Of a stretch of 64,000 nucleotides of DNA, positions 41,904 through 56,790 are shown in pieces (position 1 is the first letter of the stretch; every line of letters starts with the position of its first letter). The position numbers and the translations under genes are program-made. The notes below the pieces were generated by a model. That model had not been told where the DNA came from. It did not search any database and saw only the letters and a program-made list of their open reading frames with translations. Source of the DNA: Janthinobacterium psychrotolerans (lineage in GTDB: Bacteria; Pseudomonadota; Gammaproteobacteria; Burkholderiales; Burkholderiaceae_D); the NCBI RefSeq assembly GCF_001677885.1, contig NZ_LOCQ01000058.1, positions 1-64,000 on the forward strand, given 5' to 3'.

Positions 41904-42395
41904 ATTTTCCTCACCCGGTTGGGTCGAATTTATTTTCACACTTATTATTCCTTCTGCAGCCACTCAAAAGGCATTCTTTTTACTCTTGAAGTAAACTTTT
42001 GATTTCGCTTTTCCAAGTTCTAAAGCTTCCGTTTTGAAGCCTATGCCCTTGGAGGCTTGGTTCCTGAGCAGCACTCTCCCAGTAGCCAGGCGGTAAAGCC
42101 TGGCTCCGTGAGAACGCTGAATGCCCCTCTTCGACTTCGGACACTGCGCATAGGGGAGACTTTGACCGCTTGCGGCCCCCGACTCGACTCTCCCCACTAT
42201 CACCCATCGTCGCCGCCTGTCGTCCTTCTTGCGGCACTTCCACTACGCCCGTTTCGCGTTAATACCCTAGGTACTGCGTAGCGTTCGCTGGCTCCATCTA
42301 TCTGGACGTGCGCTGCCCGACGTGATTTTGTCCGGGCATCCGGTCGCCCAAACCTCTGGCGACGAAAACATTTTACATGAAAAGAAGAAAATAAA
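41904..42395. ncRNA. Gene-free structured region between immunity genes and OL; candidate ncRNA or leader
   Basis: No convincing gene in about 490 bp. Strong inverted repeats: AGCCAGGC / GCCTGGCT (42084-42105, 6-base loop); GGGGAGA (42153-42159) with TCTCCCC (42189-42195), enclosing a GACCGC-type hairpin; CCCCT (42124-42128) could instead pair with AGGGG (42152-42156), giving two competing folds; GCTTC / GAAGC near 42022-42037. A minus-strand promoter (TAAAAT near 42374-42379, TTGCTT near OL) could make an RNA ending near 42020 or serve as a long leader for the gene at 41903. It matches no ncRNA family I know. Confidence 0.4.
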
Positions 42396-42436
42396 AGCAA
42401 ATTGCTCTTGCTATGCTAAAAGCAAATTGCTATAGT
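42396..42436 (+). promoter_or_regulatory. Second operator pair and rightward early promoter (OL/PL-like)
   Basis: Two perfect AGCAAATTGCT dyads (42396-42406, 42421-42431), centres 25 bp apart, identical in core and spacing to the cro-cI operators. Promoter: -35 TTGCTA (42408-42413), 17-bp spacer, -10 TATAGT (42431-42436). The right dyad touches the -10, so repressor binding should block it. Confidence 0.85.
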
Positions 42437-42469
42437 TCACTCCATCGAAAGCAACCACAGGAGTACGAC

Positions 42470-42652
42470 ATGTCCCGCACCCAAGCAATCGCACTGATCA
42501 AGGCCAATGCCGCCAAAGGCGACATCAGGACATGCACGCGCATCTTCGTGGAAAACCGCATCAGCCGCGCTGTGTACGACCAGGCTGTGGCCGATGGCCG
42601 CGCGTTCGGTGCTTTCGTCGCAAAACGTGATGCAGCCCGGAGCGCAGCATGA
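42470..42652 (+). CDS. First gene of the rightward early operon, small protein
   Basis: 60 residues (MSRTQAIALIKANAAKGDIR, ending AKRDAARSAA). AGGAG lies eight bases before ATG 42470; the leader from the promoter is about 27 bases. Helical and basic; the position resembles lambda N, but there is no Arg-rich motif strong enough to call an antiterminator. Confidence 0.66.
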   Translation: MSRTQAIALIKANAAKGDIRTCTRIFVENRISRAVYDQAVADGRAFGAFVAKRDAARSAA

Positions 42653-42738
42653 GCCCCGCCGAACTCGCAGCACTCGCAGCGGTCCTTATCGCCCACGGCG
42701 AAGTGATCCCGGCAATCGTCATCCCAGCGCGCGGCTGA
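42649..42738 (+). CDS. 29-residue small hydrophobic protein
   Basis: ATGA overlap with the preceding stop; the product MSPAELAALAAVLIAHGEVI then PAIVIPARG is mostly hydrophobic. Too short to classify; coupling supports translation. Confidence 0.45.
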   Translation: MSPAELAALAAVLIAHGEVIPAIVIPARG

Positions 42739-42743
42739 TCGCC

Positions 42744-42968
42744 ATGAAAACCACCTCAAGCATCGTCGCCACCAAGACCACCAACGATGGCCATTGCGCC
42801 GGCCTGGTCGCCAGCATCGGCTGCCCGCGCCGCCTGGAAATCTGCAACTCGTTCGGCGCTACCCTCCCGCGTGGTCAGTTGCGCTACTTGGAGTGCGGCG
42901 CTGCCGACGCGATGCGCGCCGAAGCCTACCGGAACTACACCGGCCCTTGGCGGATGGAAGCGGTATGA
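42744..42968 (+). CDS. Small early protein, unknown function
   Basis: 74 residues with three dispersed Cys (HCAGLVASIGCPRRLEICNS, LRYLECGAADAMRAEAYR). Follows the previous stop by five bases and overlaps the next gene by ATGA. Not recognised. Confidence 0.55.
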   Translation: MKTTSSIVATKTTNDGHCAGLVASIGCPRRLEICNSFGATLPRGQLRYLECGAADAMRAEAYRNYTGPWRMEAV

Positions 42969-43198
42969 GCGCACGGGACGCCCTGCCCGGCTTGTTCACG
43001 GCGCCGCCGGCGCGCGCAACCGTCCGCAAATACGACGTGCGCATCGACTTCGAAGACGGCACGTTTCGCGGCAGCGCCTGGGCCAGCAGCGCAAACCGCG
43101 CGCATGAGCTGGTCCGAGCGGACGCCCGCATGGCCGCGTGCAGCGGGACGTTTTACGGCAAGGAATTGAACTGGATTGCGGAGTTGGCGAAGGTTTAG
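42965..43198 (+). CDS. Small early protein, unknown function
   Basis: 77 residues (TVRKYDVRIDFEDGTFRGSA, HELVRADARMAACSGTFYGK). The beta-strand start and helix suggest a compact alpha/beta fold. It is the last gene before the 530-bp gene-free block. Confidence 0.58.
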   Translation: MSARDALPGLFTAPPARATVRKYDVRIDFEDGTFRGSAWASSANRAHELVRADARMAACSGTFYGKELNWIAELAKV

Positions 43199-43264
43199 CG
43201 GCTGCCCGCCGCCGCAGTCATGGCGGGACAGGCCCGGAAGGCCGCATAAATTCCCCTGGAGCCC

Positions 43265-43431
43265 AGCATGGCCCCTGACCTGCGCCAGGCGAGCGCAGGA
43301 ACCACACAGAGTCGGTGACGCCGCCGACCTGAAAAGGATTCGATTATTTGCGTGCAGCGCGGCCTGGCCAACGCAAATTTCAGGAACTACGCCTGATGCC
43401 GCTTGGGAAAGCCAAGCCCGACTCTGTGTGG
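43265..43431 (+). ncRNA. Structured RNA with 14-bp perfect long-range stem
   Basis: CCACACAGAGTCGG (43302-43315) is the exact reverse complement of CCGACTCTGTGTGG (43418-43431). Inside, CCTGAAA pairs with TTTCAGG, ATTTGCGT with ACGCAAAT, and GCTTGG with CCAAGC around a GAAAG loop. Just upstream, CCTGCGC-N7-GCGCAGG (43279-43299) is a perfect hairpin. No protein frame fits. The density of exact, nested pairings indicates an RNA gene or structured leader in the early transcript. Confidence 0.62.
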
Positions 43432-43453
43432 TGAAAGCGCAGGCTGATGCGCA

Positions 43454-43523
43454 ACTTGTGAAAGTGTATCCGGCAGCACGCCTGGCAGACAGGAAGAAAC
43501 GCGGTTCGAACCCGCGCACAAGA
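43454..43523 (+). ncRNA. tRNA-like cloverleaf, degenerate
   Basis: CTTGTG (43455-43460) pairs with CACAAG (43517-43522); inside are GTG/CAC, CCTG/CAGG and a perfect T-arm-like CGCGG-TTCGAAC-CCGCG (43500-43516). The anticodon-like arm is short with a 5-base loop lacking the usual T33, and there is no CCA. So it is not a working tRNA; a tRNA relic or a tRNA mimic is possible. Confidence 0.42.
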
Positions 43524-43632
43524 GAGTTGGCTGGGTGCCAGCTCAAAAACAAGCCGGAGATCAGCGCCGGCCGCCACACGCCAGCCTGAGTGCGCACAGG
43601 CCCATGTCGGACATGGATAAAGCCGAACGAAA

Positions 43633-43703
43633 GCCCCGGAGTGGTTCAGGGCCGGACAGCAAGGGCCGGAACTGGCCGAGTTCGATTCTCGGCAGGGGCG
43701 CCA
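43633..43703 (+). ncRNA. tRNA-like element with T arm and CCA end
   Basis: The T arm CCGAG-TTCGATT-CTCGG (43676-43692) is perfect, followed by CAGGGGC, a G, and encoded CCA (43701-43703). GCCCCGG at 43633-43639 pairs with six of the seven 3' acceptor bases. The 36 bases between cannot form normal D and anticodon arms. It could be a processing or charging mimic, or a decayed tRNA. Confidence 0.45.
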
Positions 43704-43731
43704 GACAACAACGATTCGAAGAGGGGATGAG

Positions 43732-44172
43732 ATGTCGATGTTGACAAAAACTCGCGGAACGCCCGGCGATCTTTTCGCCGACGAAGTGAATCGCATGCTG
43801 CGCGACTGCGCTGATGCTGAGCCCGAGAAGCTGCCGCGCGAGGTCTATCCAATTTACGCGTTGCCACTTGTCGGGGGCGACTACTCGCTCACGGCCGAAC
43901 CTGTTGAGCACCGCAGTAGAGCGGTGAAAGTATTCAACGGGGTCACGGAGGTATGGCTGCCGCGTTCACAAATCCGCCGAATAGTCGCGCATCAAGTGAT
44001 TGTGTCGGAGTGGATCGTGCAGCGGAAGCGCCCGTTTTTCAAGCTTATGAAAAACCAAAGCCATCAGTACTTGGAGTGGCTGGAGAAGCGCGAAAAGGAA
44101 AAAGCGGTTGCCGCCGTGTGGGTGCGCGAGAGCAGGGAAGTTTTTGGGTGTCAGTTTGACGGAACGGATTAA
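43732..44172 (+). CDS. Early phage protein, unknown function
   Basis: 146 residues from ATG 43732 (GAGGGG seven bases upstream). The middle (EVWLPRSQIRRIVAHQVIVS, EWIVQRKRPFFKL) resembles small nucleic-acid-binding proteins, followed by a basic helix (YLEWLEKREKEKAV). It follows the structured RNA block and a TTG-start gene follows. Not recognised. Confidence 0.64.
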   Translation: MSMLTKTRGTPGDLFADEVNRMLRDCADAEPEKLPREVYPIYALPLVGGDYSLTAEPVEHRSRAVKVFNGVTEVWLPRSQIRRIVAHQVIVSEWIVQRKRPFFKLMKNQSHQYLEWLEKREKEKAVAAVWVRESREVFGCQFDGTD

Positions 44173-44182
44173 GGAGAGAAAT

Positions 44183-44407
44183 TTGAGCACCACCAACCAC
44201 ACTACCGCCGGCCGCCAGTCCCGCCTCGCCGTGTCTGCCGCCCTTGCCTTTGCCCATCAGGATGCTGGCATCGAATCAGCGCTGAACAGCGGCTGCCTGG
44301 ACGCGACCGAGCAAATTCCGTGCGGCGCCTGTTACGGCGTGCAGGCCACGGCCAAGCGCAACGGTGTTCGCTTGGTGCTGACCTGCCGCGAACGGAGCGC
44401 ATCGTGA
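44183..44407 (+). CDS. Small early protein, unknown function
   Basis: 74 residues from TTG 44183, chosen because AAGGAGAG lies just upstream. A CGACYGVQATAKRNG segment holds two Cys. It overlaps the next gene by GTGA. Function unknown. Confidence 0.55.
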   Translation: MSTTNHTTAGRQSRLAVSAALAFAHQDAGIESALNSGCLDATEQIPCGACYGVQATAKRNGVRLVLTCRERSAS

Positions 44408-44768: not shown

Positions 44769-44872
44769 GCCAGGTCTTTCGCAACTGGCGCGCCGGCCAC
44801 GCCATTGGTCACGCCGTCCGCCTGGCGCTGTTGAAGGCGGAAATTACAAAACTTACAAGGAAAACGTCATGA
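44756..44872 (+). CDS. 38-residue basic protein upstream of recT
   Basis: ATG 44756 to TGA 44872, overlapping the previous gene by 13 bases and recT by ATGA. The product (MRAVGQVFRNWRAGHAIGHA, ending KLTRKTS) is basic and amphipathic. Supported mainly by the coupling to recT. Confidence 0.45.
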   Translation: MRAVGQVFRNWRAGHAIGHAVRLALLKAEITKLTRKTS

Positions 44873-45990
44873 ACGCAGTTACGCAAGAAAGCCGCACCGC
44901 CATGCAGGCCACGCAATACGAACAGGGCGACATGCCCGTCGTGGCCACCAGCAGCGCCTCGCTGATCCTCGACAGCGCAAGCATGGATAGCATGATGCGC
45001 CTGGCCGACATCATGGCCAAGGGCCGCGCCACCGTCCCGGAACACCTGCGCGGCAATGCTGCCGACTGTGCGGCTGTGGTGATGCAGGCCATCCAGTGGC
45101 GCATGAACCCATTCGCGGTGGCGCAGAAAACGCACCTGGTCAACGGTACGCTCGGTTACGAGGCGCAGCTGGTCAATGCCGTGATCCAGTCGAGTGGCGT
45201 TACGCTGGACCGCTTCAACTACGAATGGTATGGGCCCTGGGAAAAGATCATTGGCAAGACGAAGGTCATCACCATGCCCGCCAAAGGCGACAAGAAGGAA
45301 TACCAGTTCCGAGTGCCGGACTACGGCATGCAGGACGAGGACGGCTTGGGCGTACGCGTGTCATGCACGCTGAAGGGTGAAACCGAGCCGCGCGTGCTTG
45401 AACTGCTGCTGGTGCAGGCCAGCGTACGCAATTCGCCGCTGTGGGCCACTGATCCTAAACAACAACTGGCCTACCTCGCAGTCAAGCGCTGGACCCGCCT
45501 GTATGCGCCGGACGTGATTCTCGGCGTCTATACCCCCGACGAGCTGGAAGAAGTGAATCGCGAAATGCGCGACATCACACCAACTGGCGAGCAGGTCGCC
45601 AGTGCGCCGGCGGCGCCCGAAGCCTCGCCGGGCCTGATTCAAGAAGCCAAAGCAGCCGCCGCCCGGGGCGTCGCCGCCTATCAGGAGTTCTGGAGCAAAG
45701 CCGGCGCGCCGAACCGTAAGGCGCTGGCCGCCTATCACGACGGCTGGAAGGCTGACGCCACGGCCGCCGACCGGGCGCGCACCGTCGACGCGGAGCCGGC
45801 CGCCGGCGCCGCCAAGCCACTGTCCGAGCACATGCAGGCGATCCTTGCCGATTTCAGCGCACTGGCCGACGAGGGTCTGGATATCTTCAACGAAAGCTGG
45901 GGCCGGCTGTCGCCAGCAACGCAAGACGGCCTCGCCGCCGAATATCCGAAGCTGAAGGCCCGCGCCGAGGCAGTCAAGGCAGCGCAATGA
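44869..45990 (+). CDS. recT: RecT-family single-strand annealing protein
   Basis: 373 residues from ATG 44869. RecT signatures: LADIMAKGRATVPEHLRGNA, CAAVVMQAIQWRMNPFAVAQ, VNGTLGYEAQLVNAVIQSSG and WATDPKQQLAYLAVKRWTRL. The C-terminal 120 residues are a helical extension not needed for annealing. It works with the exonuclease encoded by the next gene, ATGA overlapped. Function: RecA-independent annealing in phage recombination. Confidence 0.92.
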   Translation: MNAVTQESRTAMQATQYEQGDMPVVATSSASLILDSASMDSMMRLADIMAKGRATVPEHLRGNAADCAAVVMQAIQWRMNPFAVAQKTHLVNGTLGYEAQLVNAVIQSSGVTLDRFNYEWYGPWEKIIGKTKVITMPAKGDKKEYQFRVPDYGMQDEDGLGVRVSCTLKGETEPRVLELLLVQASVRNSPLWATDPKQQLAYLAVKRWTRLYAPDVILGVYTPDELEEVNREMRDITPTGEQVASAPAAPEASPGLIQEAKAAAARGVAAYQEFWSKAGAPNRKALAAYHDGWKADATAADRARTVDAEPAAGAAKPLSEHMQAILADFSALADEGLDIFNESWGRLSPATQDGLAAEYPKLKARAEAVKAAQ

Positions 45991-46757
45991 TCGTCCTCAA
46001 CTGCGAACAAGGCAGCGATTCATGGCATCAGGCGCGCGCCGGCGTGATCACCGCCAGCATGTTCGTGGTCGCACGCTCGCGCACCGGCGGCCTGGACGAG
46101 AAGCAACAGGTCTACGTCGACGCCATCCGGCAGGGATACAGCGAAGGCTATGCCCGCGAAATCGCGGGCTACCGCGCTACGCCGAAGGCTGAATCCGTTC
46201 AGCGCGCCATCGAAGGGCTGCCGGTCGGCGACTTCTCGGAAGCGGCCAAGGCCTATGCCTTCCGTCTGGCCATTGAGCGAATCAGCGGCAAGCCATTGGA
46301 CGAGAGCTTCGAGACGTACGCCATGCGGCGCGGCCACGAGTTGGAACCGGCGGCACGCCGCGAGCACGAGATCGCCAGCGGTCACATGGTGGAGCGCGCA
46401 GGCTTCGTACTGACCGGCGACCGACTGTTCGGCGCCAGTGCTGACGGGCTGATCGGCAGCGACGGCGGCAGTGAATACAAATGCCTGATCTCGCCGGAGC
46501 GCCTGCAGCGCATCTACATCGAGAACGACGCCAGCGAGTTCATGGACCAGGTGCAGGGCTGCATGTGGATCACGGCGCGCAATTGGTGGGACTTCTGCCT
46601 GTACTGCCCTGCCCTGGAGATCATCGACAAACACTTGTGGATGCGCACCTTCCAGCGCGACGACGAATACATCGATCAGATGGTTGAGGAGCTGACCGAG
46701 TTTGAAAAATTGGTTTCCCATAACGAAAAACTATTACGGATGAAGGAAGCAGCATGA
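45987..46757 (+). CDS. YqaJ / lambda Exo-type 5'-3' exonuclease
   Basis: 256 residues. The start QGSDSWHQARAGVITASMF and the catalytic core FGASADGLIGSDGGSEYKCL (Asp, Glu and Lys of the PD-(D/E)xK site) match YqaJ/lambda exonuclease. MDQVQGCMWITARNWWDFCL is the helix that follows in the family. It resects ends to feed RecT. Confidence 0.93.
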   Translation: MIVLNCEQGSDSWHQARAGVITASMFVVARSRTGGLDEKQQVYVDAIRQGYSEGYAREIAGYRATPKAESVQRAIEGLPVGDFSEAAKAYAFRLAIERISGKPLDESFETYAMRRGHELEPAARREHEIASGHMVERAGFVLTGDRLFGASADGLIGSDGGSEYKCLISPERLQRIYIENDASEFMDQVQGCMWITARNWWDFCLYCPALEIIDKHLWMRTFQRDDEYIDQMVEELTEFEKLVSHNEKLLRMKEAA

Positions 46758-56715: not shown

Positions 56716-56760
56716 TGGTGGGAAGTGCAAGTTTCGAACTTGCGACCCCTGCAGTGTGAA
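56716..56760. other. Probable prophage attachment site (right junction) in the tRNA 3' half
   Basis: int points at the tRNA 3' end, the standard geometry for integration at a tRNA. The core is probably within the T arm to anticodon part of the tRNA; its exact limits need the left copy, outside the window. Confidence 0.65.
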
Positions 56761-56790
56761 TGCAGTGCTCTACCCCTGAGCTAACCTCCC
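56716..56790 (-). tRNA. tRNA-Val (CAC)
   Basis: The acceptor GGGAGGT pairs with ACTTCCC; the anticodon stem CTGCA/TGCAG carries the loop TTCACAC, anticodon CAC; T arm GCAAG-TTCGAAA-CTTGC; CCA is encoded (56716-56718). The gene is complete, so integration left it functional. Confidence 0.95.

What the first reader, a model, noticed from the sequence alone, without database searches (positions are those of the whole stretch)
43199..43731. 530-bp RNA-structured block with tRNA-like parts in the early operon
There is no gene between 43199 and 43731, although the operon elsewhere overlaps every gene. The block holds a 14-bp perfect long-range stem (43302-43315 with 43418-43431), nested exact stems, a perfect 7-bp hairpin at 43279-43299, a tRNA-like cloverleaf (43454-43523) and a T arm with acceptor and encoded CCA (43633-43703). 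Possibilities are a phage RNA gene, a put-like antitermination element, tRNA mimics that recruit RNase P or synthetases, or decayed phage tRNAs.
Basis: seen in the sequence. Interest (0 to 1): 0.72.

Follow-up and report, generated by a model that had tools for sequence, protein, structure and literature searches.

The report
Widespread structured phage RNA, function unknown
The block is one copy of an apparently undescribed structured RNA found in many unrelated bacterial viruses, including the laboratory phage P1, often beside their tRNA genes; what it does is not known.

Summary
At its centre (43425-43580) lies a conserved RNA core: a closing helix, hairpin A, a variable linker, and hairpin B, with complementary A and B loops. 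blastn with a consensus-like member hits 232 of 50,697 phage records (E<=1, some chance), among them HK620 and P1. No Rfam family matched the core. Covariation is strong: 14 of 23 pairs change on both sides. G-U outnumbers A-C 33 to 3, so this strand is the RNA. tRNA genes are about 70-fold denser near the element, 27 of 27 on its strand. P1 carries a tandem array after its tRNA genes, one unit STnc100-like. The 'cloverleaf' is a T arm plus an acceptor-like stem, not a tRNA; a second T-arm/acceptor/CCA module is also real. Best reading: a stable RNA cut from early or tRNA transcripts, a constant core with exchangeable arms. Function is inferred; I saw no transcript data.

The parts
43425..43580 (+). 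Conserved RNA core (closing helix, hairpin A, linker, hairpin B)
   Evidence: Covariance model R1: 67 bits, E 7e-17. The window sequence was one of the 62 seed rows; it was tied to phages independently by blastn.
43279..43299 (+).
   Evidence: Sequence; the same hairpin precedes the long stem in L003 and L006; in the class with a long 5' stem, 28 of 61 elements have a hairpin of 5 bp or more ending within 5 nt of it, 12.5% in shuffles.
43302..43315 (+). a1: 5' strand of the 14-bp stem
   Evidence: Sequence; pairs with 43418-43431, kept by complementary changes in four relatives.
43418..43431 (+). 3' strand of the 14-bp stem; 43426-43431 is also used by the closing helix
   Evidence: the same strand competition in 33 of 33 elements that pass the 1% control.
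43426..43433 (+). a': 5' strand of the closing helix (GTGTGGTG)
   Evidence: Pairs with 43572-43579; all 8 pairs of this helix show changes on both sides in A3.
43437..43452 (+). Hairpin A (GCGC-AGGCTGAT-GCGC); loop bases 43443-43448 complementary to 43560-43565
   Evidence: 3 of 4 stem pairs change on both sides in A3.
43453..43552 (+). Variable linker, here 100 nt, with a T arm (43500-43516), acceptor-like stem (43455-43460/43517-43522) and a hairpin (43524-43531/43537-43544)
   Evidence: Sequence and fold; linkers form 131 clusters among 155 distinct ones.
43553..43571 (+). Hairpin B (GCCGG-AGATCAGCG-CCGGC)
   Evidence: 2 of 5 stem pairs change on both sides in A3.
43572..43579 (+). a2: 3' strand of the closing helix (CGCCACAC)
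   Evidence: recovered when 43426-43590 is folded alone.
43633..43703 (+). tRNA-like module: 5-bp acceptor, long middle arm, T arm, CCA
   Evidence: Sequence; close copies in L002-L004 (94-98% identical over about 80 bases of the query) and a diverged one in L006 that keeps acceptor, middle arm and T arm paired. Not called by ARAGORN or Rfam.
42408..42436 (+). Promoter-like site of the early operon that would transcribe the block
   Evidence: 9 of 12 consensus match with TG; 3 sites found in 42300-44200 against 0.4 in shuffles; not evidence of function.

Best explanation
The block encodes one member of an apparently undescribed family of structured phage RNAs. Shown here: a conserved core (closing helix, hairpins A and B with complementary loops, variable linker) that covaries as an RNA of this strand, recurs in unrelated phages, is often found beside tRNA genes on the same strand, and in a good part of the members is preceded by a 5' hairpin that competes for one strand of the closing helix. 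Inferred: the RNA is cut out of an early or tRNA transcript; the 5' hairpin forms first during transcription and is partly displaced when A, B and a2 emerge; the constant core is a scaffold (binding a conserved host partner, or pairing between copies through the A and B loops); and the variable arms, here with T-arm and acceptor modules, present tRNA-like or other surfaces in trans.
For: A3, 63 sequences: 96.5% of cells paired against 83.9% shuffled, 14 of 23 pairs changed on both sides against 8.8, score 0.337 against 0.103, 0 of 500 shuffles as high, and slid structures at most 54.6% paired. G-U 33, A-C 3 over the stems and the six inner closing pairs of 60 distinct rows of A2. tRNAs: 27 in 229 kb within 1 kb, 1 in 629 kb beyond 2 kb, 27 of 27 on the same strand. 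Strand competition: 33 of 140 pass a 1% control, 33 of 33 overlap the a2 site. T arms: 13 of 155 within or just upstream of the core, 0 on the reverse strand. P1 tandem array.
Against: No transcript was seen. A sigma-70 scan is not enriched at the element: 3 of 89 without the long 5' stem (control 1), 0 of 61 with it (control 3), and 1 of 61 before a1, so an own promoter is not supported. Downstream terminator-like sites in 31 of 110, with no control. Linkers are only slightly more stable than shuffles (mean z -0.61) and rRNA likeness is confined to a few. In the window itself no tRNA gene is near. The loop-loop pairing rests mainly on invariance, with one compensatory case, and 7 of 63 rows break its outermost pair. 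The minimum-energy fold of the whole block forms the 14-bp stem and not the closing helix. The two outer closing pairs (7-8) are often unpaired, with A-C 24 and G-U 7.
Confidence: 0.5

Rival explanations
1. A cis-acting element of transcription or transcript protection (put-like antitermination, or shielding of untranslated RNA from Rho) that acts on the transcript that carries it.
For: It lies inside an early operon here, in the late leader between qut and tQ in HK620, and in long untranslated tRNA regions; own promoters are not enriched.
Against: Tandem units of different class in P1; opposite strand to both neighbours in SBP; a highly variable linker is not an obvious need of such an element. 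Not tested directly; I hold no put sequence from any call.
Confidence: 0.15
2. A base-pairing regulatory RNA of the Hfq type, as STnc100 and PasD are described, with the variable linker or loops as the pairing region.
For: Same layout as STnc100 and an STnc100-like unit in the same P1 array; the 2026 preprint PMC13192938 (passages) treats its relatives as base-pairing sRNAs.
Against: No target was found; the only antisense match of a linker to E. coli rRNA is 12 bases. mRNA targets were not searched.
Confidence: 0.15
3. A DNA-level recombination site or insertion hotspot; hairpins A and B are handles for swapping the linker.
For: Near-constant A and B around a linker that differs in almost every phage; similar linkers occur with different closing helices, such as L040 and L103.
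Against: G-U exceeds A-C 33 to 3, which a DNA cruciform would not give; tRNAs sit on the same strand in 27 of 27 cases.
Confidence: 0.04
4. Decayed phage tRNA genes.
For: T arms with TTCGANY loops, acceptor-like stems and CCA; T4 stable RNA C also carries a T arm.
Against: The conserved core is not a tRNA and covaries; the tRNA-like module keeps its pairs in the diverged L006.
Confidence: 0.03

Closest known systems
STnc100 (Rfam RF02076), with PasD
   Same: Same layout: closing helix, GAAU, hairpin, linker, hairpin; the P1 STnc100-like unit has the same kind of 5' hairpin; found in 7 of 50 records that carry this element at E<=0.001, 1 of them over the Rfam cut-off.
   Different: Different hairpins and loops; the window does not match RF02076 even at E<=10. 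My model hits the P1 STnc100-like unit only weakly (18-22 bits).
GOLLD and ROOL RNAs
   Same: Phage and prophage RNAs of unknown function, often near tRNA islands, with kissing loops and a linker that can hold tRNAs (PMC12286853, passages read).
   Different: Much larger (about 660 to over 800 nt) and unrelated in sequence: no Rfam match here. Assembly of the present RNA is untested.
T4 stable RNAs C and D
   Same: Non-tRNA RNAs at the end of a phage tRNA cluster; RNA C has a T arm.
   Different: No match to model R1 at E<=1 (L301); no hairpins A and B.
tRNA
   Same: T arm beside an acceptor stem, and CCA in one module.
   Different: No D arm and no 7-nt anticodon loop seen; not called by ARAGORN or Rfam.

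Membership tests
Family defined here (model R1) | Closing helix, hairpin A, linker, hairpin B, complementary loops | tested here: met
   67 bits, E 7e-17; the window was in the seed, so this is by construction in part; all eight closing pairs, both stems and the six loop pairs are present in the sequence.
STnc100 (RF02076) | Covariance model score | tested here: not met
   No match in the window at the gathering score nor in 42900-44000 at E<=10.
STnc100 (RF02076) | Overall layout of helices | tested here: met
   Read from the Rfam structure line; a comparison by eye.
GOLLD / ROOL | Covariance model score | tested here: not met
   Window against all 4227 Rfam families; the paper states that both profiles are in Rfam.
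GOLLD / ROOL | Location near phage tRNA islands | tested here: inconclusive
   Met for the family as a whole, not for the window, where the only tRNA is 13 kb away.
GOLLD / ROOL | Homo-oligomeric assembly | not testable with these tools
   Needs purified RNA.
tRNA | ARAGORN or Rfam RF00005 call | tested here: not met
tRNA | T arm with TTCGANY loop and 5-bp stem | tested here: met
   Two in the block.
put antitermination RNA (HK022) | Antitermination in cis | not testable with these tools
   Needs a reporter; no sequence comparison was made.

The most novel reading that the evidence does not exclude
A self-assembling phage RNA, a proteobacterial counterpart of GOLLD and ROOL, whose copies join through the A and B loops and display exchangeable tRNA-like or rRNA-like arms as bait for host enzymes or defences that act on tRNA or ribosomes, with the fold set by strand exchange during transcription.
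Probability: 0.15. Interest if true: 0.95.

Novelty: new variant of a known kind. Interest (0 to 1): 0.78.

Why it matters
A structured RNA shared by many unrelated phages, P1 among them, matched no family of Rfam 15 in my searches, and its core strings are in none of 5.39 million PMC texts. In the P1 reference record the array is covered by two reverse-strand ORFs, plp and upl. It gives the open question of what the non-tRNA RNAs of phage tRNA islands do a simple test system, P1 in E. coli K-12, and it ties STnc100 and this family into one architecture.

Tried and rejected
tRNA gene: rejected. Known Rfam family: for the core only sub-threshold matches, rydB at 17.7 bits in the window and 13.7 bits in L199. 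General rRNA mimicry by linkers: 6 of 155 linkers hit E. coli rRNA at E<=0.01 (1 of 155 shuffled): three are one cassette resembling 16S 254-282, two share a 13-base 16S match, one is a 12-base antisense match; of the 150-nt upstream stretches 5 of 169 hit (0 shuffled). Own promoter: not supported. Loop A base 20 other than G, stems fixed: 0 stretches. In A1 hairpins A and B look invariant because the first scan demanded them; A3 was built from looser searches to avoid this; 50 of 398 Pseudomonadota genomes match at E<=0.01; 5 exceed 60 bits (G137, G391, G431, G000, G125); G284 at 38 bits also has both hairpins (L160); most of the rest that I printed show only short partial likeness, so the true share is nearer 6 of 398. 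G176 (33 bits) has hairpin A but no clear B. Dropped rows: A3 leaves out partial or badly aligned matches (such as L030, L162, the partial L236, L231 6718-6857, L234 789-919) and many near-duplicates. The 156 E. coli genomes include some that match only the upstream part; 96 cover at least 80% of the query. Paper searches; subscription papers outside PMC were not searched, so 'undescribed' means not found there or in Rfam 15.

Full report
Check of the observation. The label 'cloverleaf' does not hold: ARAGORN and Rfam find no tRNA in the block. What is there is a T arm beside an acceptor-like stem (43455-43522), and a second T arm with a 5-bp acceptor and CCA (43633-43703).

The conserved core. 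blastn of 43100-43800 against 50,697 phage records gave 110 records at E<=1; the best of them share two short pieces. Read together these are two hairpins, A and B, inside one closing helix, with complementary loops. A consensus-like member hits 232 phage records at E<=1, some of which may be chance. The 23 exact-pattern matches in named genome contigs are mostly Gamma- and Betaproteobacteria, with one Bradyrhizobium, one Magnetococcales MAG and one Verrucomicrobiota MAG. In the window's genus 8 of 40 genomes, its own included, match at E<=1e-5. Of 5,426 E. coli genomes, 96 hold a place that covers at least 80% of the HK620 stretch.

Is it an RNA? On alignment A3 (63 sequences that I chose for variety from the loci held, leaving out partial or badly aligned matches), 96.5% of cells pair against 83.9% shuffled; 14 of 23 pairs change on both sides against 8.8; the covariation score is 0.337 against 0.103, with 0 of 500 shuffles as high. 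Hairpin A stems include GCGC/GCGC, GCAC/GTGC, GCGG/CCGC, GATA/TATC and GCTA/TAGC; hairpin B stems GCCGG/CCGGC, GTCGG/CCGAC and GTAGG/CCTAC. The loop-loop pairing is 97.9% kept, nearly invariant, with one compensatory case (L242); its outermost pair is broken in 7 of 63. G-U pairs outnumber A-C 33 to 3 over the stems and six inner closing pairs of 60 distinct rows of A2, an alignment fitted to the model, so the plus strand is the RNA. The two outer closing pairs are loose: over 122 elements, 168 of 244 cells are Watson-Crick, A-C 24, G-U 7.

Three-strand arrangement. The whole block's minimum-energy fold takes the 14-bp stem; 43426-43590 folded alone takes the closing helix. Among 140 elements with distinct a' strands, a' pairs with its own upstream as well as or better than the 1% control threshold in 33, and in all 33 the pairing covers bases that a2 also needs. 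The sequences differ widely, so the competition itself seems to be kept. That the first stem forms and is then displaced is inference.

Company of tRNAs. Over 120 viral loci with distinct linkers, 27 ARAGORN tRNAs lie within 1 kb (229 kb examined) and 1 beyond 2 kb (629 kb); all 27 are on the element's strand; 16 of 120 loci have one (without removing repeats, 36 of 183 loci). Of 17 loci scanned with Rfam, 9 hold tRNAs. In P1 (OP279344) the interval between tRNA-Thr and tciA holds a tandem array: unit 1 at 65634, a degenerate unit 2 read by eye, unit 3 at 66063, and an STnc100-like unit at 66326 (33.9 bits, below the Rfam cut-off). In the P1 reference record my model finds unit 3 and, weakly, the STnc100-like unit, and two reverse-strand ORFs, plp and upl, are annotated over the region.

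Kinship with STnc100. RF02076 has the same layout (compared by eye). It is found in 7 of 50 records that carry this element at E<=0.001, 1 of them over the cut-off. The 2026 preprint PMC13192938 (passages) links PasD with STnc100 as prophage sRNAs; PMC12370729 (passages) places a copy of STnc100 downstream of stx2 and says its role is hypothetical. The passages I saw do not describe the family found here.

How it may work. A near-constant core with a highly variable linker (155 distinct, 131 clusters), same-strand tRNA company, and T arms in or just upstream of the core in 13 of 155 elements with none on the reverse strand suggest a processed, stable RNA that carries exchangeable arms. GOLLD and ROOL, also often near phage tRNA islands, assemble with the help of kissing loops (PMC12286853, passages); the A and B loops could do the same, but nothing here tests it. 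Against a simple picture: promoters are not enriched, rRNA likeness is confined to a few linkers, the window has no tRNA gene near, and no transcript was seen.

Verdict. In my judgement the RNA family is about 95% certain to be real, a trans-acting role about 60%, and the scaffold-with-arms mechanism about 30%; the 0.5 given for the best explanation covers the whole statement.

Noticed in passing
L311 271-840 (P1 reference NC_005856 69472-70041): The annotated ORFs plp and upl run on the reverse strand across the RNA array and may not be genes.
   Followed up: partly
L022 3020-3083 (Klebsiella phage SBP linker); the same cassette in L050, L084, L136: The linker resembles a piece of 16S rRNA (86% over 29 bases for the cassette; Rfam SSU model 38 bits in L022, below its cut-off).
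   Followed up: partly
L002 around 1400-2000 (genome G023): A close relative of the locus keeps the long 5' stem and the tRNA-like module but seems to have lost the A-linker-B core (read by eye; no model match).
   Followed up: partly
L007 and L013, about 400-600 nt after the match: Two relatives carry a 15-bp perfect stem of the same kind (CCAACAAAGCAAGGG with CCCTTGCTTTGTTGG) followed by a different module (read by eye).
   Followed up: no
43204-43274: The stretch just before the RNA is conserved on its own in several genomes of the genus without the core.
   Followed up: no
L301 1109-1247 (T4 rnaC): T4 stable RNA C, of unknown function as far as I recall, ends in a T arm (CCGGG-TTCGAAT-CCCGG).
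   Followed up: no
56716-56790, minus strand: The only tRNA gene of the window, tRNA-Val; it could be a prophage attachment site, not examined.
   Followed up: no
44872-46757: A RecT-family and a YqaJ-type recombination gene follow the block (Pfam).
   Followed up: no
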